From Protonemura montana (taxonomy: Eukaryota; Arthropoda; Insecta; Plecoptera; Nemouridae), in the NCBI GenBank assembly GCA_947568835.1, contig OX387605.1:3472001-3536000 (forward strand): a stretch of DNA of 64,000 nucleotides, read 5' to 3'. Made by a program: the position numbers and the translations under genes. Shown here in pieces: positions 19,745-61,000 of the stretch. The first letter of the stretch is position 1, and every line of letters begins with the position of its first letter. The notes beneath the pieces are model-generated. The model did no database searches and was not told the origin of the DNA. It saw nothing but the letters and a program-made list of their open reading frames with translations.

Positions 19745-22700
19745 ATGCCCGCCCCAGCGCCAGCCGCCGTCCCCGAGAATGGGGGGCCCCCGAAGACCGA
19801 ACTCCAGGAACTCCAGCTCAAGGCGGGACAGGTCACCGATGAAGTGAGTACCATCTTTTCAATACTTCATGGAGTCGATGTCTAGGTCGTCAATCGACGG
19901 GAACAGGGACACAGGATTCTTGGTGGGGTCTCGTTGAAAAGGATCTTAGGTTCTAAGTCAAAAGGGGAGCGAGGTTTATCATATTCACCACGACGATTCT
20001 GGGTTTTCTGGGTTGACGGGGCAGGCCCACAATACTGACAATAAGAGGTTAAAATCCTGAACGGCATTGTACTTCATGATGTCGTCTGAAAATGTAAATA
20101 TGGACATATGTTGCAAATTCTTTCAATTACAATAATGGGCTTTCAAATTGGCGGCGGATTGTGAGTTTTTTTAGTGACATTTTTTTCGGGTAATATTCTT
20201 GTGTAAATCTAGGGCGAGATATATAAAGATTTTCAAGATCCCACAAGACAAAATGGTACATTTTTTCTTAAGACTTAGATGGGTTTGGGTCGTGGGTTCT
20301 TGACGAATGGTTCGATTCACAGTAAGCCTGTGCAAGAACTGCTAAATGTTCCAGTCAGACTTGAATTATAACTTGGACCGCGCCTGGTCTGGGACTGGGG
20401 CTTGCGGGAAGAAGACAGGGAAAAGGATTGCAGTTCTCAGTTACCTTTGACCACCAGCATAATTTATCACACCTGAAGCTTGCATTGAAGCTCACGTAAT
20501 GAATGGTAACTTTTAGTGTCATTTTCGTGCTGTAACGTAATTAAATTTCATTGACGACATGACAGCTAATTTCTAAAAAAAAAAACAAAAAAAAAACGGA
20601 AAAACTTTTGTCTTTTGGATATATAAATGTCAACTTTGTTGTCTGGAACGGGCTTGTTCAATTAAAGTGAAATGCCTGAACCGCGACGGAAACAAATTAA
20701 AATGTCGAGTGATCATAATGGAGCTCTCTGCAAAGGAAACTTTTTTTTAACAATTCAGTTCAACATCTAACTTTAAAAGAACGAAAATGATTCCGGTGTC
20801 GCGAGCCTGGCATTGTGTTACAAAATCATGGGGGGGGGGCGACTGACAAGGGACGACATCACAAATTTCCAGCTCCGTTCATTGTCGCTCCGCCCGCGTG
20901 TAGTCACTCAATAATCAATCATAACGCTGGCAGACCGAAAATAGGTCAGGGAAGATTCGTGTTAAATACAATATTTTGAAAGGAAGTCGAAGTCAGGGTG
21001 TGCTTTCTGGTCGCGTGCCGGGCTGTACAGTGAATGCGAGCGTGCGTGTACCCACACCACGTATTTACACGCAGAGAATGTGTCGATACACCGGCTTACA
21101 CCTCGCTAGCCTTAGGAGGTTCATTTGGTTCTCGACTCATAAGGTGATTAATAATGTGTGGGGGGTGTTTTGCTGCAACCCCTTTCCGGATGCAAGAGCT
21201 CCGTGCGCGGAGCTTTGTTGCTGGCTCGGCTTTTGTGGTCCGTTGCCGGGGGATGCTGATGAAGATGAATTCGAGATGATGCGCTAAAGCTCGCCTGACA
21301 GGAGACTGCGGACGAGCACCGATTAGAACTATGCTACATATTTCACAACATGCCTGGCATGGTTTTGTGTAGCGGTATGTTGTGCCAGGACTGTTTACGA
21401 ACACAATTTGACAACATTTTTGGCTATAAACTTGATGGAGTATCGATCATTCGTGTAAATTTAGTAGTGAAGCAACTTTGTAGATGCAAATTTGGCAATT
21501 CATGAAACGAGAGGTTTGCATTTTAACTGCACTTGAGTATACCGCACCCGAAACGGCGGCCGCTTGGTGTTACTTGATTTAACGAGTAACATTTCTGGAA
21601 TATTACTCGGTGCCACTTGACACAATTTAGCTGATGAGTTGTTAAATGAGCAGATTTCGTGGTAGCGCGAAGACAGGTCTAAGTTTAACCCGATTCCGCG
21701 AAAATCGCGAGCACTGCGTCACGCTGATTGGCTTGGTAGAAGGCTGATCCACTCGAAACGCCGACTGCAGCACTTCGCAAAGTGGCTAATGATCACCTGC
21801 AACCATCGAGAGGGAAGATTGGCAGCTATTTCCAGGCTGACCCCAAGGCCCCCTACTCTACGCGGCTTAGCGCCAATCGATGGCAACACTCGCTGCAAAG
21901 TTCTTACCGCGAGACACAAAAAGCGACAAGTAAATACATCTTTTGGACTGACACTAGCAGACAATTCAATTAGACGCAAGAACATAACGAATTAAAATTG
22001 GGTTAACCTTTCTTCTCTTCTAAACCTACTTGTGGTCGAGAGTGATTCGGAATAAATATTTAGATAATTGCTTTGGAAATTGTTGATGTTGACAAATGGT
22101 TCCTGTTATTCGTTTTTTCCCTTCGAATCGCGTGCCACAGCCGGCTGGGACTGTGTCAACATTACTCGCAACAATGCATCGCCGTGAATTAGTGGAATTT
22201 AATGCCGCCAGCGAGCGAGTACAGCAGGCAAACACTTTTTAGAATGTTTCTCAATGAAGCCATAATGCCTCGATAATGTAGGACAAGCTGCATCGCTATA
22301 ATGCAGCTATGCACTCTCTGGCACATGATGCATGCAAAGCGTTTGTGGGTTACACGATAAATGGTTACCTGTAAATGTGTTGATTCCTACTTGTTGTAAT
22401 TGTTGGCGGTGGCCCCTCCTGCCCGACCTCAGGAATCACCTTCTCGAAGTCGTGGCAGACGCCGACTGGCTGCGCGCTAAACTCAAGGCCGTTATCATTG
22501 ACCTTCAAACTTTCCTGCTTCTCGCCGGCCGCTCTGCTCCGTTCGTCCCCCGGTTTTTCCCGACTATTTCTGGACTTGCGTTTTCTTCAGGGAAATGCGC
22601 GTATAATTTTCTTGCACCAAGGACGCACTGAGCGACCTATCGACCTCCGACTCCAAGATACGCAGGTCGCACCGAACGATTAAAAGAGCGACACCACATA

Positions 22701-31700: not shown

Positions 31701-34700
31701 CTTCTGTCCCCTTGCAAGCACGCTCTATTCGCGGCCGCTTTATCGTTGCGTTCGGATGACGAGATATACAATATTGTTTTAGTTTCGGTGTTTTCTGCTC
31801 AAACTTGACATTGGCAACGAGCGGTTTGGTTGGAAGGAACCGAAAGACAAATTTTGTTTACAATCATTGCCTATAGTTGTTACGTTTCACAAAATGCTCT
31901 GTGGTATAATAACGTGGTGTCGGTGTAATATTTTTGTGTTTGGTTTTCATTATATGCATGGTTTTATTTGATTGAAAAATGGATCGTTTGTTGCCCTCCC
32001 CTGCGAGTCGCTACACGTGCCAAGGAGCAATTAACTGATTGTCCCCCCTCCCCCCTTCTCGCTGTCAGAACATTGGTTTGCGCTTCAGATGAATTCCCCG
32101 CGACTGTGTACCGGAGAAACCGGAGTAATTTTCAACAACCTGCATGTACAGGTATACATATATTTCGGCAAACATAACAATAATTACCTGGCTCGGCATT
32201 GTCAGTGCCCAACAGTCAACCTAGTACGAACAATTCGACGCCAGTTTGAATGTCAGCTGGCATGCAATCGTGGTTAACCATCTTTGTTGTATGATAATTA
32301 GTCTGTGTACTTATTACTTCACTTGTAATCACGAGTAGTCGTTTCACTGTGAACGCTCCACTTATCAGATTGAACGATCAAATAAGATGCCATTCAAATA
32401 ATATGCATTGCATTGCGGATAATTAATTGCAAGATTGAAAACAGTACGGATTGGTGTATAAGTAAACGGTACAGTCCTTTAAGATTACAGTTCATTTCTC
32501 ATCTTATGGAAATATTGTCATGATTGGAAATCAGCTACGTGTAGCAACGCACGTTGTGTTTAAAGTACGCCCTATACCCATCTCTGGTACGGCGCTTGGT
32601 AAACGTTCGTCGTACACCAGATCGGTCTTCCATTGACAAGTCTTGGAACACGAGATGATGGGCTCCCATCCCTACTATCGCTCACCACATCGGCCAACAG
32701 GTCGAATTCGCGTACCTCGCATGACATATTGACTATTAGCATGCGTCCCTCGGCGTCCTCCCGGCAGGGGTGGGGTGTCAGTGTGTCGCCACCGAAGCCG
32801 CCACCTGCAACCTCCACGAGGCAGCCGTGTCGAAATTGCGGTCGGCGCACAGCAGAGGCGACGGCGTCCCCGAAATGTCAACGGGTCGTCGCGCACGTTG
32901 CCCTAGCGGAACCTCGATCGCCGCGCATCTCAACGTGACACACACACATTTTCCGCTTCCCTCGTTGAACGCCAACACATGCCGGGGATACCGCTGTTAT
33001 GTTTCGGTGTTTCATGTTGGTGGGATAACTTTTTTATTTGTTTTTGAATAATTACTTTCTCCATGTCCTGGTTCATGTATGCCATTACGTTTTACCGCAC
33101 CTCGTTTTTGCGTTCATGTTGTTACGGCAGTACCTTGTTTATCACAGAAGAGCAACGATGCAATTCACGCTAATTACCACAGACTAGGAGCCTTCCAAGC
33201 AAAATGCAAACTCTATGGTGCGATATTATTTGGAGTCTTCTGGACCTCGCTGTCCTCGTATGCTGGAGCTGGCACTCAGGACTGCATGGTCTAGACTGCC
33301 TATAGGCGTATCGCCTCCGTTCTAGGATCGTTCGAGCTCTCTGATGGAATCATGTGCAACGACGGGAAACTAGGCAGTGTGGTGTCGAGGTGGAGGGGTG
33401 GAGGGCGACGTGGAATTGACCTCACAATTCAATCATCTGTTCCATGGAAAGTTATGGACGAAACTTCATGTACGTGCCGTCAAAATTTAATGGCTCGCTT
33501 AATCCACGTGTCGTTAATCTTTTTATCACTCTGAATTAAATTGACGTGCTGATTACTTCGCGTCGCGTTTGCTGCGCTAAAGTGTCGCCGAAACTCGCGG
33601 ATGCGATCAGGATGTGCACGTGGATGTTGGAAAACATGTAAAACCAAGTACCTACCGAAGTGTGCGCGTCTCAACCACGCTTCGAGTATTGATTGATTAT
33701 AGACTTTGCATTTATGATGGAAAGTTGGAAAGTTTGCCACCGGCGCTAACCAGAGATATTGGGGGAGTGTTTTTATTGGAACATATTTATTTCTTACTAA
33801 TACAGTGCTTTCTTATTCGTGCCCTAGGCAAGTTGTGCCCAAAGCAAGTTGTACCCTACGTTTGTCTGCACCAACGCTAACGTCTGTGTGTCTTTCTGTT
33901 TCAGTCATTGGAGAGTACCCGGCGCATGATAGCACTATGCGAGGAGGTGAGCGATTATTCCAACCTAACGACCCTCCGTGACCCTAATTCTGACTTGTTG
34001 TTATGAAATCCATGTCCTGGGCCTGAAAGGGTCCAACTCGCTACCCGCTTTACCATATTGACCCGAGATTGATCCGTTGGTTGGATGTATTTCTTAAATT
34101 GAATGTTTATATACCGTGCTGTTTCGGCTGCCTCATTAGGTTGCATCATTATATTAGAATGAGAGTACAGGCCACGTTCGTTCCCGATTCCGTTCGTGGA
34201 GTTGTGAGTTAGCATTTGACCTTTCGCCTCGTGGCTTGTCCAAAGTCGGTTCATTTTTCCACGACTCCGAAGCGACTTGAATTCCTCATGAAATGAATAA
34301 GTAATCATCTCGGAAGGAACACTTTTGTCCGTTTCCCAGGCGCGGCGCTCCGTGACGCGCCTGGAAAAGAATATCAGTTCATCAGACGATAATACGGAAA
34401 ATTGTGAATTGTAGCCGGGCGTGAGGTGCGCGCGGGGAAAAAAAAAAAAAAAAAAACACGCCCGTGTGCAATTCCGCTCGTTACCCCGCTGCGAGTGACT
34501 TACTTCCATTATACATTTTATGATGGAGCTAAATTTTTAATCGGCTGAAAAAGAATGAGCGCTGCTAACTTGTTAGAGCGCGCTCATTTCCAGATGTTGT
34601 AAAGTTGTACTCCAGATGTGCAGTGCTCGCGAGCCGACTAGCGGGCGGGCAAGCGATCCTACCTGCCAGACAGGAAGATTACAGGATTATGTTATTGTTC

Positions 34701-37700: not shown

Positions 37701-40700
37701 GTAAGCTGACTAACTCTGTCGAGAGCGAAGTTGCTGTGATAGTGCTCGGCTTAAATGCTTACAGACGGCTCACGTGAGAGCTGCAGGCAACACAATTACC
37801 TCTGAACACTGAACGAAATGTCAAAACAAAGATCTTGCAAACTATAAGGAAAATTAATTATGGATCGGCTCCACTTTTGTTATTACAGCTTTCAACTTAA
37901 ACTTAACTTGGCACGGATGGAAATTTCAATTACAGAAACCGTGACTCAGTATCGAAGTTAAAAGTTCTCTCTTAATGCTTAGCTACAATAATTAGGTTCA
38001 CTCAACGGTCTCCTCCCTATCTCTCTCGCTCTATCTCTATCTCTCTGTCTCTGTCTCTTCTCTATGCTTACGTATCTCTTTATTATTTTCTCTCTGTGTG
38101 TCAGCTCTGGCCGGCTTATCTCTGTTATCTGAATTGTTGTGCATTTTCTTCTGTGTAGGTGTTTAATTACCAAAAAAAAAAAAATAAGGTTTTGTTGTGC
38201 CCAAAACAACACCTTTCTAGTGGCTGCTGTATTACTTTTAATTTTGATGTCTTGTGTGTACCATTCACTCTATGTTATCTTGACTCGATCCCTACGGAAT
38301 CACTGTGTCACTGCCAGCTAGGCTAAACCAACTACTGTACTTTCTGTCTTGTGTACTGTAATGTAATGTGTTGTTCTTCTTGTGTCGTACGTTCTATGTG
38401 TCAATGTCCAACACTCGTTCCAAAATTGGCGACTTGGAAGCGTTTATGAGTACGTGTTTGCATGCGCAGAGCAGGGGCGTTTATGTGATACATGGAAGGT
38501 GACATACATACACACTCCAGACACCCTGAGGTTGAAAATATAACTAATTATGTTTGTTTTTCCGTTCGTTACAACTTTTTTTTAACATCTTCGGGAGACA
38601 GCGCTACCCGGAGTCTGAACACAGTGGAGTTAGCTAGAGAAAAACACCGAATCGTCATATGTCAACACCTGTCGCATTTTCTTTTACCGAACAGAGTCAT
38701 TCCTATGCTAAGAACTCATCATCATTCACTCGCGAGATGTCACAGAGTACACCGGATGGAGGAAGACACTTCGCGCACAAATCACACACGGCGGCCGTTT
38801 TTCCTGGACGTACGCATTGGGCGTTGTCGCTTTTTTTAAAACATTTTTGCTGAAATTATTTTTGTTGTCTCCAGGAGAAATGGTGCGTCCAACGACACAC
38901 TCGACGTCTTAAATCCCAAACCTGAAATACGTAATTTTTTATCTTTATGTAAACCAATTATTGGAAACTACTTGACCCACACACACACACACCTGTGAAA
39001 CTCAGCATTGTGCCAACAGTTACGCAACATCAGTAGTCCAACTCGTGGTTCTGTTTAATTTTGCCTCGAGAGGTTAGGGAAAACTAAATATATGGATGTG
39101 TTCTTTTTCGTGCTGCTCAGAGCAAGGAAGCTGGCATCCGCACCTTGGTGGCCCTGGACGACCAGGGAGGTGAGTTGTCCTACCCAACCAGTCGCCCACC
39201 TACAATCTCCCTACTCCAGAGTCACTCGTGGCTCAATCAGGACCGACGCTTTCCAACAGCAAATTTATCGATTTGGCCGCTGTTAAAGCGGCCAGCAATG
39301 ATTTTGTGTTGACAGTTGGTTTCTGATTGCGTTTCCTTTGCACATCTTGACCAAGCTCCTACCTGGGTCCCAGCCTCGTGCGATCACCACAGACTAACTG
39401 CTGAGATCATTCCTACATTAGTCACCCTACACACTATATCTCATTGCACATTACACTTTTAAGTTGTCTTTTCTACATACATTGCATGAGAATACATGGC
39501 TGCTTTTATTTAGGTACCTACTACTTAGTTTTAGTTGATATGTTTCCAATAAGCAACACCAATAGTGCAAAACCCACGTGCTAAAATATCATCCATCTTC
39601 ATAACATTCGTATATTAAAATGGTTCAATTTAATAAATACAAGTATTAAAATGTGATAATGGTACAGACCTTTTGTTCAACCACAGGCATACTAATCAAT
39701 ATCAATCGTAAGTTCGTAACTAAAATATATACACCGAGTCACACACATGAACTGCAGTTAGTTTTCAGTATTGAAATAAAATTGCAACAGATTTTCAAAT
39801 TGAAGAGAAACGAAGTGTTTGGTTACTCAGCACCTCCCCAAAGTCAACAGAGCACACCCACGTGGCAGCATGGACTCTCCATAATGCCATGCCGACATGC
39901 AATCAACATATTATTTCTGCGAGCCAACCCTGCTGCATGTTTGTGTCGATATGATTATCATTTCTGGTGTAAATACGTTGACAGTTTTTTCCGAAGTGAC
40001 GTTGATGTTTTGGCAAGCTTAATGCGGCTCGTTCGTTGGTTCGTTCGTTGGTTCGTTACGTGCAAAGTAAATGTGCTCTCGTTTTGCAGTCTTGCCTTGG
40101 TCTTGCCGTCCGTGCTTCATTGCTCTCGCTCTCAGCCGGTTGCGACCAGAAACTGAGACGTCTGACGTTGTGTTCTCCAGATCAGTTTTCACGATTCACC
40201 TCAAGTGTGTGGAACCAATTACTTGCCGGATCAATCGATGGCTTGGCATTTTTGTGGAAACCACTTTGGCCGTCACTGTCAGCAGTTCAATGAGAACGGA
40301 CATATCAAACCAAGCGCAAATTGATTGCCCCTGGCCCTCTGCTTCCAACGTTCACATCCCATTCCTCGGCATCCTAGGAAAGGGTGTTGGTTCATTTTTT
40401 GGAACTTTATCTCCATTTCAACTTCATGCTTACAGCAGTGTACGCTTCTTATTTTCGTTCACTGTTTAGGGGTTGTATTACATTTTCCATCTTTTATTTC
40501 CTTGTTTCTCTGTAGGCATAAACATTTTTTTTTTTTTTTTTTCTATCCCTACATCTTTTCCTCTGTGTGTTGATTTTTGTGTTTTGCCATTTCGAGCTAT
40601 GATTTATTTTGTTACTTTTCCCGTCCGCCGTAGAGTGAGGAGGTCGGCGGGCAGACTCTGAAAAGCTTGAACCACCAAGGGGGTAAGATATTGATGCGGA

Positions 40701-43700
40701 TATTGACGGCCGTCACCTGCCCTTAGGGCGTGCGTTTAGCTAGCTTTGCCCACCCGTGCCCCGCAACCATCCACCACTAACCAGTGCTCTAACCATTAAC
40801 TTCTTCTAGGATCGGTCACCAAGTTGGCACTTGTGGATTCTGGGTTGCTATATCGTACGGACGTAACATAGCTTGCTCTCCAGTTTGGTGGCGTTTTTCC
40901 TACGACACCCAGCTATTTATTCTCGCTAACAGGAGTTGCAGGCCGAGCAGCCAAATTGTGTTAATCATAATTGCTCGTAGTTAGTCACCCAATGTAGATT
41001 AGAAACTAGTTAGTCGATCAATTAGTGCAATCGGTTGGTGATTGGTAATACGCAGAGATCCGTCAAGTTGCAGTGTATTTTTAGGGAGTTTTATTATTTA
41101 CTAACTTTTGTAGCATGTAGCCATTTTATATACCGATTTACTTGTGTTTTTATGATTTGTTTCTTTGACCATTTACTGTTTTCTGTTGATTCCTTGGTTC
41201 TCTGTGTGAATAATTTCTGCATGGTGTTTTGTATTGTTTGTACCGCTCGGAGACTCTTACGCAAGCAAGAGTGCGCAAAGTGGCGTGACAGGCGGTCCCT
41301 GATTCTGGGCCCTGGTCACGGTCCAGCCTAGGGGTGGGGCATTCTAGCGGGAGGTGCTCCATAGGTCCGCCAGCAATTTTGTTCATACTCCTGTTACTAT
41401 TTTTGTAGAGCCACGAAGTCGGAATGAAAACCCTAGTGATGTTGGATGAACAAGGGGGTAAGATTTCAACCATTACTGTTTGAAAATTACCGTACTTTGT
41501 TCTATGTTGTGCAGCCTACATAAATGTATTTTATGTAGCTTTGTTTTTGACAATGTCTCTGATCACTGGCATTCATGGCTGTTGACGTAATAAGCAACAA
41601 CAAAAGAAAAGAAATATTACTCAAATATTTCAATTTTACGTACTTAAACATTTTAATTTAAAAACACATGAAATTTGTGAACACATCAGAATCTACAAGA
41701 CATAATTGTGCACATATTTCGTCAGTGTGTGGCTGACTCGATGTTCACCTAGAAATCTTGGTTTTCCCAGAAAGTCAAAACGGCTCTGCCATCGTGCGTC
41801 ATTGTGTTCTCTATCCAAACGATTCGATGTCGCAGATTTGAAGTCGGCTCAATTTCTCATCAAATTTGGTCTGGGAAAGCCAAGAATTTCTTGCGATTGC
41901 GTTAGGGCAGGTTTGAGAACATGTCGATCAGTTCTGTGTGCATGCATTAATTCAAAGCTGTCAGCAATAATCTTTGAATTAAAAAAATAAACACATAAAC
42001 AGCAGTACTTTTTTTATGTGCCCTCTGCAAGTTATAAATTAAAAAATATAATAATTGGGAGGAATACAGCTGAAGAATTGCAGCTACTGTAGGAAGTAGA
42101 TTTCAGTGTTGTTTTAGCTTGAGAATTTTGTGTTTGTGTTGGTGGTGAACTGTACTAACACCTGGGGGGTGAATGACAAATTAGATTAGAGATAATTAGT
42201 GGTAACTTATTATGCATGCACTGGCTGTGGTCAATTGGTGACGTTGAATATTATAATATTATCTGTTTTAAAGGAATCCCTCTTAAAGTAACAACTAATC
42301 TATTATCTAATAATAAAAATAACATTTTGTTACACTTCCAACATCTAAGACACAGCTTCCAAGTGTTCATGAACTGTAAGTGGTATAAAATACGACACCA
42401 TTATTTCCATTCAAGTTTAAGCATGAGAGTTCTTATTTTGATTCATCGTAGTGAACCATAGAAGTTTTTGCACATTCCAAACGAAACCTATACCTTAACC
42501 TACATCTACCTTACAACCATCGTATCCAACAAACATTACTTTTTAAAACCAACTTGAAAGTGACGTGCCTCAATCTGCACATAATGGCACAAGAATTAGG
42601 TACAAAATACCGATCAACACCCCAACATGATTTGGACATCTGTTTTAAAAATTAAACATCGTGATTCATGACTCATAAGCATGCAAAAACTTGAAACTCT
42701 CACTTAAAACTGCTTTAATTAAAATATCTTCAGTCAAGTTAACAAGAAACCCAGGCACTTTTAAACTCAAATTCCAAAATACGTAGCTGAACCCTCCAAT
42801 AGGGTCTTGAAAGTCACAGGACTGTGATCTAACCGTGGTTGCTGTGTGTGGTGTTTAGAGCAACTGGACCGCATCGAAGAGGGCATGGACCAGATCAACG
42901 CGGACATGAAGGAAGCGGAGAAGAATCTCACGGGGATGGAGAAGTGCTGCGGCCTGTGTGTACTGCCGTGCAACAAGTACGTTCCTCGAGAACACGCAAC
43001 GCTCGCTGATTCAGCCACATAATTCTGCAGTTCTCTGTGTTGTTCAAGAATATTTCAGTTATTTTCGTCCTTATCTTTGTCTAAATTTTTTATCAGAAAC
43101 TAGCCGACGGTCTGCACGGTAAAATATCAATCAAACCTACGAAAATATGTAAGAAAATAAATAGGCCGGGCTCAGGGAAGAGTCTTCTATTTACATTATT
43201 TCGGTCAATTTACGGTATTTCTTTTGCGTATTATTTTATTCGGACTTTAATTTTGACGTCATAATATAATTGTCTGTGCACTTCTGCGTCGACACTATAC
43301 GGAATTTCTTTCCAGGTCAGCGTCTTTCAAGGAAGACGTGGGAACTTGGAAGGGCAACGACGACGGCAAGGTAGTCACCGGGCAACCGTCGCGAGTCATG
43401 GACGACCGGAACGGACTTGGACCGCAAGGCGGCTACATCGCCAAGTGAGTCGGACGCAGAAATTATAAGTTGTCTCAATATACCACGGGCTAGAGATGCC
43501 AGATTTAGGACTAGGATTCAAAAGACAGGCTTTGCTATGTTTATGGGATGAAAGAAATTATTTTTCTCTTAATTGGAGTCGAAGAACAAAGTTTACGATA
43601 TTCCTCAGCTGACTTACCTTGAGCAAATTTTTGTAAAGTTTTAATGTCTTGTAAGATACAACCAATCTGTGAACCATGCCATGCCCCAGCTTTTTCTGCA

Positions 43701-45308
43701 AAGTCAATCGTGACTTTCCTGGTCAATAACAGCTGAATCATAATCAAAATCAAGATCTAAATCGAACTGCCGGTGTTCCAAATAAGAGACTTAACGTAGT
43801 TGTCTATACCGTACGAGCTGGCCACTACAACACGGATCTCTAACAGAGCCGTACCTCGCGTCACGACTAGTTTGCCAGGCTTACGAGACGTTTGATTTCA
43901 GAATCACAAACGACGCTCGAGAAGACGAGATGGAGAACAACATGGGTGAGGTGAACACCATGATAGGTAACCTGCGCAACATGGCCATCGACATGGGTTC
44001 CGAGCTGGAGAACCAGAACCGGCAGGTGGAGAGAATCAACCGCAAGGTAGGTCATACTTGCCATCTGTTGGCGGGACCTCTTGGTGGCCGACTCGATGAA
44101 AATTTGATCATTGTGTTTTCAAATGCCACAAGGACCTGATAAAAAGCTGCAAATTGTCCAAACGTATTTTTATTTGGCACTTCGGGTCAATCTTATCGTA
44201 TTAAATTTGACATTTGAAGGAAAATAACTTTTCTTTCAAATGTAACTCAGTGGCTGTGGCGATGTGTTCTTATTGCCATAAGAAATACTAATATGTATGA
44301 AAAATAATTGCACGGGAATATATTGCGTAAAGAATTAACTGTAGAAGTGCTAAATCAAAGCATGGATTGTTACTTAATTCAGTCCTTGATAACTCTTTGT
44401 TGTTAGAATCTATTGCATGTTTTGTTGGGGATTTTAAGAAATGTGTCAATCTGCATTTGTTCATTCCACCTAATAATATTTTCCTGGTTAAAACTATCAA
44501 CCTCTATAATTCCATTGATCAAATAATTGCTATTGCATCCCTTAATGGAGCAAATATATGAATTGTGATCTATAGTAATCAGAATCCTTCCCATTTCCGC
44601 CACATCCTGTATACTCCTGCAAGTTTGGGGTTTTCTTGTAATTGATTTATGCCACCAAGAAACAGATGCCAAGAAGTAACAACGTACTTTTAAAAACTTG
44701 AAAATATTCTCATCGCTCCTCATGTATAACTTTACGGTTTGTTCAACACGGTCAATGCCTATGACTTTCCACACATATGTAAGCGCAATGAATGACATTT
44801 TTATGATGGTTTTTAGACTCATGTCTACTTGAATAATCCTTAGCACTAGTTTTAAGAAAAACTATTTGAACTGGGTTTTGAATGCTAAGTAAAGGGCTAC
44901 TAAATTTCCCGACGTTTCGCAACATATACTAGTTACTTCTTCAGAGGTAACTAACAGATGACTGCTCAAACCTCTGAAGAAGTAACTAGTATATGTTGCG
45001 AAACGTCGGGAAATTTAGTAGCCCTTTACTTAGCATTCAAAACCCATTTCAAATAGTTTTTCTTAAATGAAATTTTTAGTTTGTGATACTCTTGGCGCAA
45101 AGACCTCACGTTATTGAAAATTGGAAAAAACACAAATGCTATGAATTTGAACGTTTTGGTTGCACTTCTTGGTGGCAGTCATTGACTTGGTGGCGAGTGG
45201 CGTCGGTGTGTGCGTAATATGTTGCTTGTGTGTGCCCCGAAACAGGGCGAGTCCAACGAAACCCGAATAGCGGTCGCCAACCAGCGAGCCCACGAACTCC
45301 TCAAGTAA
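19745..45308 (+). CDS. Snap25: SNAP-25, t-SNARE of synaptic exocytosis, with alternative exons
   Basis: Supplies two of the four SNARE helices (Qb and Qc) that pair with syntaxin and synaptobrevin to fuse vesicles with the plasma membrane. Coding exons: 19745-19843, 33905-33946, one of 39121-39169 / 40634-40682 / 41409-41457, then 42859-42976, 43316-43444, 43902-44046 and 45246-45308. All joints are in phase, giving 214 residues, close to the family length. The start ATG is at 19745 ([14 protein letters not shown]), 11 bases after an acceptor. The Qb helix holds [14 protein letters not shown] and zero-layer Gln62. The palmitoylation linker is CCGLCVLPC (93-101). The Qc helix has [20 protein letters not shown] and zero-layer Gln184, ending QRAHELLK. 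A second last exon at 45818-45958 gives a 240-residue form. The 49-nt and 118-nt exon sizes match my memory of vertebrate exons 4 and 5. Certain as to family; isoform use is untested. Confidence 0.97.
24776..24812. repeat. Pyrimidine-rich tandem repeat
   Basis: Two direct copies of a CTCTACCCTCCTT unit are followed by CTCTCCCCC, within the large Snap25 intron. Confidence 0.7.
26450..27510. promoter_or_regulatory. CpG-dense block inside the Snap25 intron
   Basis: The longest GC-rich patch of the intron, about 1 kb. It begins with an array of GGCGTCGGCGTCGTC type (26482-26530). A donor-like GTCGAG|GTAAAG occurs at 26974. The block could be an internal promoter or enhancer for Snap25 or for a non-coding transcript. 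No TATA box or initiator stands out, and I assign no gene. Confidence 0.25.
29011..29044. repeat. GACGCC inverted repeat (hairpin)
   Basis: CGACGCCGACG (29011-29021) is an exact inverted match of CGTCGGCGTCG (29034-29044) around a 12-base loop. It is one member of a dispersed GACGCC motif set seen in both orientations across the window. Confidence 0.8.
33947..39120 (+). other. Snap25 intron before the exon 4 cluster
   Basis: A 5.2-kb intron without a recognised gene. It holds homopolymer runs (A18 near 34439, A12 near 38171), a CT-rich microsatellite (38005-38070) and a short CA run near 38980. Confidence 0.7.
38005..38070. repeat. CT-rich microsatellite
   Basis: Imperfect TCTCTATCTCTCTGTCTC repeats in the Snap25 intron. 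Confidence 0.8.
39121..39169 (+). CDS. Snap25: Snap25 exon 4, version a (canonical)
   Basis: This 49-nt exon encodes [16 protein letters not shown] plus one base, flanked by tgctgctcag and gtgagt. It enters in phase 0 and leaves in phase 1, exactly as required between 33946 and 42859. The sequence is the usual insect SNAP-25 version and carries SNARE layers -4 (Ser48), -3 (Gly52), -2 (Thr55), -1 (Leu59) and 0 (Gln62). Confidence 0.93.
40634..40682 (+). CDS. Snap25: Snap25 exon 4, version b (alternative)
   Basis: This 49-nt exon encodes [16 protein letters not shown] plus one base, flanked by ccgccgtag and gtaaga. Length and phases are identical to version a. The layer residues S, G, T, L and Q are all kept. 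The positions between them change (K to E, A to V, I to G, R to Q, V to K, A to S, D-D to N-H), so charge and surface differ while the core should still pack. It is the most divergent of the three. An inactive relic is possible, but intact splice sites and frame argue against it. Confidence 0.8.
41409..41457 (+). CDS. Snap25: Snap25 exon 4, version c (alternative)
   Basis: This 49-nt exon encodes [16 protein letters not shown] plus one base, flanked by ctatttttgtag and gtaaga. Phases match versions a and b, and the S-G-T-L-Q layer residues are unchanged. LVMLDEQG is the wording found in vertebrate SNAP-25, so this copy is under clear protein-level constraint. Because the exon length is not a multiple of three, joining c to a or b would shift the frame. 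Confidence 0.88.
41458..42858 (+). other. Snap25 intron after the exon 4 cluster
   Basis: A 1.4-kb AT-rich intron between exon 4c and the exon starting [12 protein letters not shown] see no further exon 4 copy with proper splice sites and frame. Confidence 0.6.
44047..45245 (+). other. Snap25 intron hosting a fold-back repeat
   Basis: A 1.2-kb intron before the canonical last exon. Its only recognisable content is the inverted repeat at 44852-45066. Confidence 0.7.
44852..45066. mobile_element. Near-perfect fold-back repeat with two opposed hammerhead-like motifs
   Basis: Arms 44852-44947 and 44971-45066 are 96 bases each and match as reverse complements at 95 of 96 positions, around a 23-bp spacer. 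Each arm contains CTGAAGA (44974-44980 on the right arm), a five-pair stem GTAAC/GTTGC (44982-44986 with 44995-44999), then GAAAC and GTC (45000-45007). The order CUGANGA, stem II, GAAA, NUH is that of a hammerhead ribozyme, with one extra base before stem II that could weaken it. The left flank AGACTCATGTCTACTT is shared with the copy at 13024. Penelope-like elements carry such motifs, so this may be a non-autonomous derivative. The two arms are far less diverged than those of the first copy, which suggests recent formation or gene conversion. Confidence 0.75.
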
Positions 45309-45817: not shown

Positions 45818-45958
45818 GGAATGTCTAATGAAATTCGGATTCAAGAAGCCGGCAAGAGAACAGAGAAGCTTCTCGACAGTAAAGAGAAAGACAACGATTC
45901 AAGCAGCAAGATGCAAATGCCGAGCGCTACAAGTATGGCTATGAAATACGTAACGTAA
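45818..45958 (+). CDS. Snap25: Snap25 alternative last coding exon
   Basis: An acceptor (gcatctcgtgtag) at 45817 opens a phase-0 frame of 46 codons ending TAA. It starts GMSNEIRIQEAGKRTEKLL, which aligns residue for residue with [19 protein letters not shown] of the exon at 45246-45308. SNARE layers +3 to +8 are kept (G, N, I, A, then T in place of A, then L). A hydrophilic tail of about 26 residues (from DSKEKDNDSSSK to MKYVT) replaces the short canonical end. Used instead of the first last exon, it would yield a 240-residue SNAP-25. The poly(A) signal at 46573 lies downstream of both. It could also be a decaying duplicate, but the open frame and layer pattern favour a working exon. Confidence 0.82.
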   Translation, partial: GMSNEIRIQEAGKRTEKLLDSKEKDNDSSSKMQMPSATSMAMKYVT

Positions 45959-58058: not shown

Positions 58059-61000
58059 ATGGAAGAGGATGGTGGTCAAAGTTCTCGGTGTGGCAGTGTT
58101 CCCGTCACTGTGTTCCCTCCAACGCCTCCAGGATTAGAGGCGTTGTACTCGCAATGTCGCGGCATATATCTGGATCAAGTGAATCCTCTGCAAGTCACAG
58201 CTCTCGTGAAATACTGGTTTGTAATAATTTGATAAAGGCCGTCTAACTTTCTCGCACTCAGACAGCACTAACAACTTGTTTGTCTGATTTGATATCAGTC
58301 GCCTCTTGTTGAAATGAAATTCCTTTTTCGTCTGACGTTATCAAAGCAGCTGCAGCGATGCTGTGGCCCACTTCACTTCCAAGATGTTGTCACTCGGTTT
58401 TTCAGTCATTGATCCGTACGTCTGACCGCCACTTGACAAATGGATGCTGGCCAGTGCTCCAGCTGTAAGTCCCGTTCTTTGTGATTGTGGTCACTGGTCA
58501 CCCCACCATTTTTCTGTACTATATAATGACACCGAGCTATAAACTTTACTATAAGTCAAGTGCGGGGAATTTTGAGCTGGGAATTAGACGGTAAAGACTA
58601 AAGTCTTCAATAATCCGAGGCCTCTTAAGGGTTCACAGTAGACGAAGTCACGGCATTTGGAAGAAATACCTTGGGGGTAGGGCGACAATAGTATCCAACC
58701 CGACCCACGAGATAGCTACCTCTATGAACGGCATGGTTCTGTGGTGTTTTCACACGGCTAGGACGGAAGTATACTCGAGCGCAAAGAGGCGAACGACATC
58801 GGATATTTTTAGGTCGCGTTGTACAGCGTCTACGCCAAAAATATACTTGCGATAGGTGCGGGACGGATATGAGGGTGACAGTGACCCCGCCTTGAAACTT
58901 CTTCAGTCTAATTTAATTCCAAGAAGTTACCCCTTTTAGCGCCCCATGGGGCCCGTGCCCTTCCTTGAAAGGGACATATATCCGCTCACTCTTTCCACCA
59001 AGTGCTTGATGAGTCACAACTCTCATTAAAAATTCGCGTGCGCAGAAATAATGGAAACAGAAACCACCTGTTGCAAGGGACAAAGTTTTGCTTTTTGACA
59101 CACTCGCATTCTTCGTTTCCCCGAATCGACGTTCTGCGTAACGCCTGCACGAACGATTTCCGCGTTGCTTGTTTTTGCCGTGTTCCCCCCGCATTACGCC
59201 GAGTCCTCATGACGCCGAGCCGCCGGTGCCACATGTCGGGGCGACGTTTGGCACGTGAGCTGCTGGGGGCCTCCCCTTTTCCTGCCCCGCTCCTGGAGGA
59301 GCCGTGGGAGCTCGCTGGGAGAGCGCGCTTCTGAGTGATCACGCACTCGTCGTTTTTGCCACTTACATCGGCGGGCATGACAAATCCACATCTGGCATGC
59401 TTCTCAGTAAATTGAGGAACCATTGGGTTGACATTCTTGAGCGTTAAATAACGATTAACGAGACTTCCTGGATGTGGCAGTCTCCACCTTGTCGGAACCC
59501 ACTAAGGAGGATCGATGTGAAATAACCAGAAATTCTTTCAGATGAGATTTAGAAGGTATTCACCCGTCACTCCGTAGAATCAATTCCGATCAAATCAGTT
59601 AACTCATCCTAAATAGTTTTACTCGTTAGTTTTTTATCTTTCCTTGGTAAGCCTGGCATTGCCTTGTCTTGATGACGTCCGTAGCATGCCACCCACCGTC
59701 GTCCATCGGCCCTCCGCCCCGGGATTTAACAGCCTGACCTTGCCATGTGCGTTCCCCGCCACTGCCTGGGTGGCCCGTGACAGTCAAGACGCGGCGATTA
59801 AAAGCGGAGGCCTCCCGTTAATTGACGCAATAACAGCCCAAGACAGACGTACTTTATTAGCGAAACAAATGCTACCCGTTCCTCGAATGCTCATTGCCGC
59901 CGCTCTAGCCGTAGTTAATAGCCGTCCGAACCCCCCGGCGCGTAGGTCTGGGTTCGAATTCCGACGAGCTAATTACCGCTCACGGGCGGAAAGATAACGA
60001 AACGTTGAAGATTCCGCGGCGGCGACTGCTGCCGATTACCTACCACAGCGCATGTGCTTGATGGGTCCAAACAGGTTGGGTGGTCCGGACCCTCTCGACT
60101 ACATCAGCATGTACACAAACGCCGGGCTGCCGGAACGCGGCATCCCCCCACACTGGCACTACATCAGCTTCGGCTTGTCCGACCTGCACGGCGACGGCCG
60201 CGTCCACGAGACGGCGACGCCGACGCCAGGCCGCGACGCCGCCAGCGGGTTCGGCTTCGAGCTGACTTTCCGGCTGAAACGTGAGCCGGGAGAAACGGCG
60301 CCGCCCACATGGCCGGCGGCTGTGATGCAGTCCCTGGCCAAGTACGTGTTCCAGTCGGGGAACACCCTGGTTGTCGGTGACCATGTGTCATGGCACTGCG
60401 CTCTGGACAACAGCGAGTCGCGGATCCAGCACATGCTGATGACCGCTGACCCCCAGCTTGGGGTGGCCACCACACCGTTCGGGCAGGTGCACTTCGTGCA
60501 GATCGTGGGCGTAACCACTGAGGAGCTGCAGGCAGCCCAGCACTGGAACGGTCCTGGGGTGCTGGACATCCTCAAGCGACTGCCAGGGTGAGCATTGCAT
60601 CCTGGAATTCTGGCACCGGTTTTTTATCATTTTCATCGCATTGTCCAAATCACAACAGCCTGAACTGAACTACCATTTTCGTTTTTTGAATGACAGCAAA
60701 ATAGGATCATCACAATTTAAGCATTTCAGCTTTCCAGAGTTGTAATTGCACCTAACATTATCTAATCTTATGACCATAATAATACTAATAATTATAGCAC
60801 ATTTTATTATCTCTTTGATCAGAAGATATAAGATCATCAAGATAATAAAAGGATACAAAGCAGACAGAAGCATGGGACAGTCTACAGTTTCCTGCAATTC
60901 CCTCCTTATATGGATTTTGGCATATGTTTCAAATAAAATTCTTCTTTCATCCAGTTTCAAAAACTTAAGATCCATAATTTAGTGTCACAATTATTTTGCA

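What the first reader, a model, noticed from the sequence alone, without database searches (positions are those of the whole stretch)
39121..41457. Three tandem, mutually exclusive versions of SNAP-25 exon 4, the zero-layer exon of the first SNARE helix
Three 49-nt exons at 39121, 40634 and 41409 each have an acceptor and a donor, enter in phase 0 and leave in phase 1. They encode [32 protein letters not shown] and [16 protein letters not shown]. The layer residues (S, G, T, L, Q at -4 to 0) are identical in all three, while most surface positions differ. Because 49 is not a multiple of three, including two copies would shift the frame, so choice of one is enforced. Vertebrates duplicate the following exon (5a/5b, 118 nt) for SNAP25a/b. 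Here the preceding exon is triplicated instead, an independent route to SNAP-25 diversity. I do not know whether this is described for insects.
Basis: partly seen in the sequence, partly recalled or inferred. Interest (0 to 1): 0.88.

Follow-up and report, generated by a model that had tools for sequence, protein, structure and literature searches.

The report
Three-way exon switch in SNAP-25
An insect gene for SNAP-25, a core part of the machine that releases neurotransmitters, carries three interchangeable versions of one small exon, and similar sets in other insects and in ticks suggest that arthropods use splicing to reshape the SNAP-25 surface that in mammals faces the calcium sensor synaptotagmin.

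Summary
Confirmed. The window holds one Snap25 gene with three 49-nt exon-4 copies at the stated coordinates, all with GT-AG sites and equal phases. A profile scan of 378 open 49-nt splice-bounded slots on both strands found just these three. One copy gives a full open frame; skipping, or joining two or three, gives an early stop. Two alternative last exons also exist, not in the finding.

It is not private to this genome. Among 189 listed SNAP-25 relatives the types recur: a ([20 protein letters not shown]), c ([20 protein letters not shown]) and variable b. Several species have isoforms letter-identical except exon 4 (a stick insect and a wasp: a, b, c; ticks: a plus an alternative). Seven paper searches found no description, though public gene models already hold the isoforms.

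New reading: exon 4 encodes K40, V48, D51 and E52 of the mammalian synaptotagmin-1 interface. Copy a keeps it (E52 as D), c loses K40, and b carries E40, K48, N51, H52 with core layers intact. K40E and V48F are human SNAP25 disease variants. I propose a splice switch that tunes or uncouples SNAP-25 from synaptotagmin. Anatomy and conservation are shown; expression here and function are inferred.

The parts
19745..19843 (+). Snap25 first coding exon, coding part ([33 protein letters not shown])
33905..33946 (+). exon 3, constant, [14 protein letters not shown], ends in phase 0
39121..39169 (+). exon 4a, [16 protein letters not shown], keeps the synaptotagmin-interface residues (E52 as D)
40634..40682 (+). 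exon 4b, [16 protein letters not shown], interface residues replaced (E40, K48, N51, H52)
41409..41457 (+). exon 4c, [16 protein letters not shown], of the interface residues only K40 replaced (H)
42859..42976 (+). exon 5, constant, 118 nt, [12 protein letters not shown]...CN; counterpart of the duplicated vertebrate exon 5
43316..43444 (+). exon 6, constant, linker
43902..44046 (+). exon 7, constant, second SNARE helix
45246..45308 (+). last exon version 8[21 protein letters not shown] and stop (coding part)
45818..45958 (+). last exon version 8B, GMSNEIRIQEAGKRTEKLLDS plus a 25-residue tail and stop (coding part)

Best explanation
A three-way mutually exclusive exon cluster in the Snap25 gene swaps the stretch of the first SNARE helix that runs up to and includes the zero layer. 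One copy is used per mRNA: only single inclusion keeps the frame, and skipping or double inclusion gives an early stop, so wrong products are expected to be lost by mRNA decay. All copies keep the residues that pack inside the four-helix bundle, so each isoform should still build a SNARE complex. What changes is the outer face that in mammals docks the synaptotagmin-1 C2B domain (K40, V48, D51, E52): a is fully coupled, c partly, and b largely uncoupled. Cells would thereby choose how tightly fusion is clamped and triggered by synaptotagmin. Shown: exons, frames, conservation of the types, isoforms in relatives. Inferred: use in this species, decay of wrong products, the effect on synaptotagmin. 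Not found: the signal that chooses the copy.
For: Exons and frames. Conservation (distinct exon-4 peptides from 188 of the 189 listed proteins plus the window's own three; P0090 dropped because its exon 4 is missing): a 4 distinct, c 7, b/alternative 79. K40 kept in 4/4 a, 0/7 c, 1/79 b. Acidic residue at 52 in 4/4, 7/7, 7/79. V48 in 4/4, 7/7, 18/79. The five layer sites in b average 0.95 conserved; 6 of all 4368 sets of five sites do as well, that set included. Isoforms identical outside exon 4: Bacillus rossius a/b/c, Copidosoma a/b/c, Thrips palmi, Planococcus and Cotesia typhae b/c, Arctopsyche a/b, the ticks Dermacentor, Ornithodoros and Amblyomma a/alternative. Interface residues K40, D51, E52, E55, Q56, D166: PMC8967716 (passages). 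Mutant K40A/D51A/E52A/E55A/D166A designed to break it: PMC9811660 (passages). V48F in the hydrophobic patch, with raised spontaneous and reduced evoked release: PMC10911398 (passages). K40E listed as pathogenic, in the Syt1-interface group, perturbs evoked release: PMC10102358 (passages).
Against: No RNA data for this species could be examined. K40E alone did not raise spontaneous release, and in-silico work cited there put K40E among changes that weaken interactions within SNAP-25. Copy b has lysine, not phenylalanine, at 48, so it is not V48F. V48F and D166Y effects were not explained by loss of Syt1 coupling alone. SNAP-23 carries K40Q and V48T, yet the authors carried the same interface over to the airway system that uses it, so loss of K40 may be mild. 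All interface data are mammalian. No RNA element for choosing the copy was found.
Confidence: 0.66

Rival explanations
1. The exon choice is real, but the changed surface serves another partner: alpha-SNAP (disassembly), complexin, Munc18/Munc13, or a different synaptotagmin or syntaxin in non-neuronal secretion. Synaptotagmin-1 is then not the main target.
For: The review reports that V48F and D166Y are predicted to impair interaction with alpha-SNAP. The scorpion and horseshoe-crab alternative peptides SQDVG[IA]KTL[VI]MLDEQG share Q40 and K45 with SNAP-23 (SQDAGIKTITMLDEQK), the mammalian form of the airway system.
Against: The residues replaced in the window's b are all four exon-4 positions named for the Syt1 primary interface (K40, D51, E52; V48). 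The scorpion/horseshoe-crab peptides are not clearly closer to SNAP-23 than to squid SNAP-25 (bootstrap fraction 0.52).
Confidence: 0.3
2. Copies b and c are mostly a regulatory device: joint inclusion or skipping lowers Snap25 output by nonsense-mediated decay, and the b protein itself hardly matters.
For: Skipping and every multiple inclusion give stops at codons 64 to 77. b is the most variable type, mean pairwise identity 0.56 against 0.91 (a) and 0.80 (c) over distinct peptides; b pools insects, crustaceans and chelicerates.
Against: b keeps the five layer sites 0.86 to 1.00 conserved over 79 distinct peptides. 24 b/alternative proteins with ordinary SNAP-25 ends come from contigs under 5 kb, which points to spliced mRNA (tables; ends checked; a 25th, P0146, has an odd end).
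Confidence: 0.1
3. Chelicerate and insect alternative exons arose by separate duplications, so the system is convergent and not arthropod-old.
For: Tick alternatives are closer to crustacean b than to chelicerate a in only 0.30 of bootstraps, and insect c closer to crustacean b than to a in only 0.16 (hand-picked representatives). Only 16 residues carry signal.
Against: Crustacean b is closer to scorpion/horseshoe-crab alternatives than to insect a in 0.999 of bootstraps, with the shared string SQDVGAKTL in Daphnia and a scorpion.
Confidence: 0.3
4. 4b and 4c are dead exon copies that gene predictors pick up.
For: None beyond the lack of RNA data here.
Against: Intact splice sites and frames in the window. 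The c peptide here is letter-identical to c in 12 listed proteins, among them bees, beetles, butterflies, a cricket and a stick insect, and isoforms recur across orders.
Confidence: 0.02

Closest known systems
Vertebrate SNAP-25a/b, mutually exclusive exons 5a/5b
   Different: The neighbouring exon 4 is multiplied, three copies and not two, in arthropods; the changed stretch includes the Syt1 interface residues K40, V48, D51, E52
Arthropod mutually exclusive exon clusters such as Dscam (PMC5740500 passages)
   Same: Tandem homologous exons; joint inclusion causing a frame shift is a known way such clusters are kept exclusive
   Different: Not described for Snap25 exon 4 in the papers I could search; no RNA pairing beyond composition-matched shuffles in the three intron pairs re-tested
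Human SNAP25 disease variants K40E and V48F (PMC10102358, PMC10911398, passages)
   Same: Copy b carries E40 and a non-valine (K) at 48 as normal sequence
   Different: Human variants are single constitutive changes; here several changes come together and as one of three options
SNAP-23
   Same: Q40 and K45 in scorpion and horseshoe-crab alternative forms as in SNAP-23
   Different: SNAP-23 is a separate gene; overall similarity does not favour a common origin

Membership tests
Mutually exclusive exon cluster | Neighbouring homologous internal exons of equal length and phase | tested here: met
   three 49-nt exons, phase 0 in and 1 out, 8-10 of 16 residues shared pairwise
Mutually exclusive exon cluster | Joint inclusion or skipping destroys the frame (one accepted ground for exclusivity) | tested here: met
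   stops at codons 64, 65 or 77
Mutually exclusive exon cluster | Splice-junction reads for each single choice, none in-frame for two | not testable with these tools
   no reads for this species; relatives have isoforms differing only in exon 4
Mutually exclusive exon cluster | A physical cause of exclusion (common but not required): U12 incompatibility, introns too short, or competing RNA structure | tested here: inconclusive
   all sites GT-AG and U2-like, introns 1464 and 726 nt, so the first two do not apply; intron pairings not beyond local shuffles in 3 of 6 pairs re-tested, intron 3 only from 38000
SNAP-25 | Pfam SNAP-25 domain, two SNARE helices, Cys-rich linker | tested here: met
   PF00835 E 3.6e-21; [10 protein letters not shown] linker; alignment over residues 16-213 to solved SNAP-25
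SNAP-25 | Zero-layer glutamine in the first helix | tested here: met
   Q in the window's three copies and in 79 of 79 b, 4 of 4 a, 7 of 7 c distinct peptides
Synaptotagmin-1 primary interface | K40, V48, D51, E52 in exon 4 | tested here: inconclusive
   window a meets all (E52 as D), c meets 3 of 4, b meets none, by sequence only; binding not measured
Vertebrate exon 5a/5b system | Duplicated exon 5 | tested here: not met
   single exon 5 at 42859-42976; one match in the assembly

The most novel reading that the evidence does not exclude
Arthropods carry an ancient splice switch that uncouples SNAP-25 from the synaptotagmin-1 primary interface. Exon b builds in, as normal isoform sequence, changes at the very residues whose mutation causes human SNAP25 encephalopathy, so a healthy nervous system would use as a release mode what is a disease state in humans.
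Probability: 0.4. Interest if true: 0.87.

Novelty: new variant of a known kind. Interest (0 to 1): 0.7.

Why it matters
SNAP-25 isoform switching has been presented as a vertebrate step toward complex neuronal function (PMC2581893, passages). A three-way switch in the preceding exon, recurring in insects and ticks and with two types listed for crustaceans, would be a separate and possibly older solution. It would offer natural variants of the synaptotagmin interface, making it possible to ask in flies or bees what fusion does with the interface full, partial or absent. It also bears on how the disease variants K40E and V48F act.

Tried and rejected
Competing RNA structure: 74 inverted-repeat pairs in 38900-42870 (25 shown, no control). 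Of six intron-intron pairs (intron 3 only from 38000), two gave a best duplex beyond all 12 whole-intron shuffles (a-b with b-c introns -35.5 against -32.7; intron 3 with b-c -33.7 against -33.6) and one tied (a-b with c-5, -32.6). Shuffles that keep local composition reached these in 20 of 60, 24 of 60 and 5 of 40, so no pairing is claimed; the other three pairs were not re-tested. The GC-rich stretch upstream of 4c gave one match in the assembly. U12 sites and too-short introns are excluded by sequence. SNAP-23 likeness as common origin: not supported. A bacterial promoter scan was irrelevant. Searches used some exon borders off by one or two; one search replaces them.

Limits: each protein search lists 120 of 2114, 2142 and 2012 matches, clustered at 90%, so absence of a type (e.g. 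c in crustaceans or alternatives in spiders) shows nothing. Tachypleus a and alternative proteins differ throughout and may be different genes. Type labels come from my regular expressions, and b pools all that is neither a nor c. Seven literature searches found no description in their listings. PMC9741552 (passages), on tandem exons in human and D. melanogaster, does not name SNAP25 in its main text; supplements could not be read. Hatje and Kollmar 2013 is not held and may list Drosophila Snap25.
Full report
What is there. The window carries a Snap25 gene on the + strand. A search of the assembly (258.48 Mb, 34 contigs) with a draft of the protein finds no second close copy: six of seven matches fall in this locus, colinear, and the seventh is a weak hit (E 1.8) with a stop (that search scores only its best candidates and did not list 4b or 4c). 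Exons with GT-AG borders join into an open frame: 19745-19843, 33905-33946, one of 39121-39169 / 40634-40682 / 41409-41457, then 42859-42976, 43316-43444, 43902-44046, and one of 45246-45308 / 45818-45958. All six combinations are open, 214 or 240 residues.

Is it more than chance. A profile built from exon-4 peptides of relatives was run over all open slots of 49 nt between AG and GT or GC: 170 on + and 208 on -. The three copies score 36.4, 37.6 and 46.1 bits; the best other slot scores -10.9. For the last exon, 45246 scores 57.2 and 45818 31.8; the best other is -5.6. The a and c peptides are identical to members of the training set, so their scores are no surprise; b has no identical relative in the set. 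No fourth exon-4 copy scores near these in the window.

Frame enforcement. Skipping exon 4 gives a stop at codon 64. Joining a+b or a+b+c gives GAG-TGA directly at the junction (codon 65). Joining a+c or b+c gives a stop at codon 77. So only single inclusion can make SNAP-25. That mRNAs with these stops are destroyed is inference from general knowledge of nonsense-mediated decay. Frame shift with decay is one of the mechanisms invoked for human clusters (PMC5740500, passages).

Relatives. Three protein searches listed 189 different proteins out of 2114, 2142 and 2012 matches. By my labels 65 are type a (4 distinct peptides), 24 type c (7 distinct) and 100 type b/alternative (79 distinct, one of them, P0090, an artefact). 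Cloeon, a mayfly, has a and c entries identical outside exon 4 and a b form in another entry, which suggests that all three types were present at the base of winged insects. In Daphnia an a form is listed for D. magna and b forms for D. pulicaria and D. pulex. In the midge Sitodiplosis two exon-4 types (b, c) and two last exons appear in all four combinations, so the two choices are independent there. 24 b/alternative proteins with ordinary ends and 2 c proteins come from contigs under 5 kb (tables; ends), as spliced mRNA would; the coding exons here span 26 kb. These sources are unnamed, so this is an indication, not proof.

Age. Scorpion, horseshoe-crab and tick alternatives suggest that at least one duplication may be as old as arthropods. 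With hand-picked representatives, crustacean b is closer to scorpion/horseshoe-crab alternatives than to insect a in 0.999 of column bootstraps; the other comparisons made range from 0.16 to 0.77 (ticks against crustacean b 0.30), so this stays open. The horseshoe-crab forms may lie in separate genes. The named spiders listed show only a, which proves nothing given the capped lists.

What changes in the protein. Mapped on human numbering by alignment, layers -4 to 0 (assignment recalled, as in the finding) are S39, G43, T46, L50, Q53. In b peptides these are 0.86, 0.97, 0.97, 0.95 and 1.00 conserved, against 0.23 to 0.82 elsewhere except G54 at 0.99. Papers put K40, D51, E52 (exon 4), E55, Q56 and D166 in the synaptotagmin-1 primary interface (PMC8967716, legend passage) and V48 in its hydrophobic patch (PMC10911398, passages). 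K40 is kept in 4/4 a, 0/7 c, 1/79 b; an acidic residue at 52 in 4/4, 7/7, 7/79; V48 in 4/4, 7/7, 18/79. The window's b reads E40, K48, N51, H52. K40E and V48F are listed human pathogenic variants of the interface group that perturb evoked release; V48F also raises spontaneous release, K40E did not significantly; variants of that group did not significantly change SNARE complex stability (PMC10102358, passages). V48F and D166Y were not explained by loss of Syt1 coupling alone. This fits the idea that b spares assembly but drops synaptotagmin coupling. It is a prediction from mammalian data, not a measurement.

What is not explained. How one copy is chosen: sites are all U2-type, introns are long, and no RNA pairing stands out against composition-matched shuffles in the three intron pairs re-tested. 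No expression data were available here.

Literature. Seven searches (listings) found the vertebrate exon 5 duplication (PMC2581893) and general work on mutually exclusive exons, but no account of a multiplied exon 4. The library lacks most subscription journals and Hatje and Kollmar 2013. Public gene models already contain the isoforms, so the exons are annotated even if undiscussed.

Verdict. Most likely a conserved three-way splice switch that varies the synaptotagmin-facing surface of SNAP-25.

Noticed in passing
window 45246-45308 and 45818-45958: Two alternative last coding exons; 8B replaces the end of the second SNARE helix and adds a 25-residue tail. Alternative ends also occur in listed proteins of cockroach, sand flies, mosquitoes and gall midges.
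   Followed up: partly
window 44862-45056: Near-perfect fold-back repeat between exon 7 and 8A; 80 matches in the assembly, about 40 places seen on both strands (40 of 1146 candidates scored), so probably a fold-back (MITE-like) transposon.
   Followed up: partly
window 41753-41771 and 41870-41888: A 19-nt inverted repeat, 89% complementary, in the intron after exon 4c; not tested against controls.
   Followed up: no
window 60052-60591: Open frame encoding a SUFU (Suppressor of fused) domain, Pfam PF05076, E 3.6e-42.
   Followed up: no
P0001 (Timema tahoe): Gene model with a partly repeated exon-5 stretch (second ...[16 protein letters not shown]); either a model or assembly artefact or a duplicated exon 5 in a stick insect.
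   Followed up: no
P0093 and P0101 (Copidosoma): Isoforms differing in length by one residue after position 39 of the part downstream of exon 4, at the exon 5/6 border: may be a shifted (NAGNAG-type) acceptor.
   Followed up: no
P0037, P0087, P0100, P0106: Gene models that contain the a peptide, then other residues, then a b or c peptide; they look like prediction errors and not true double inclusion.
   Followed up: no
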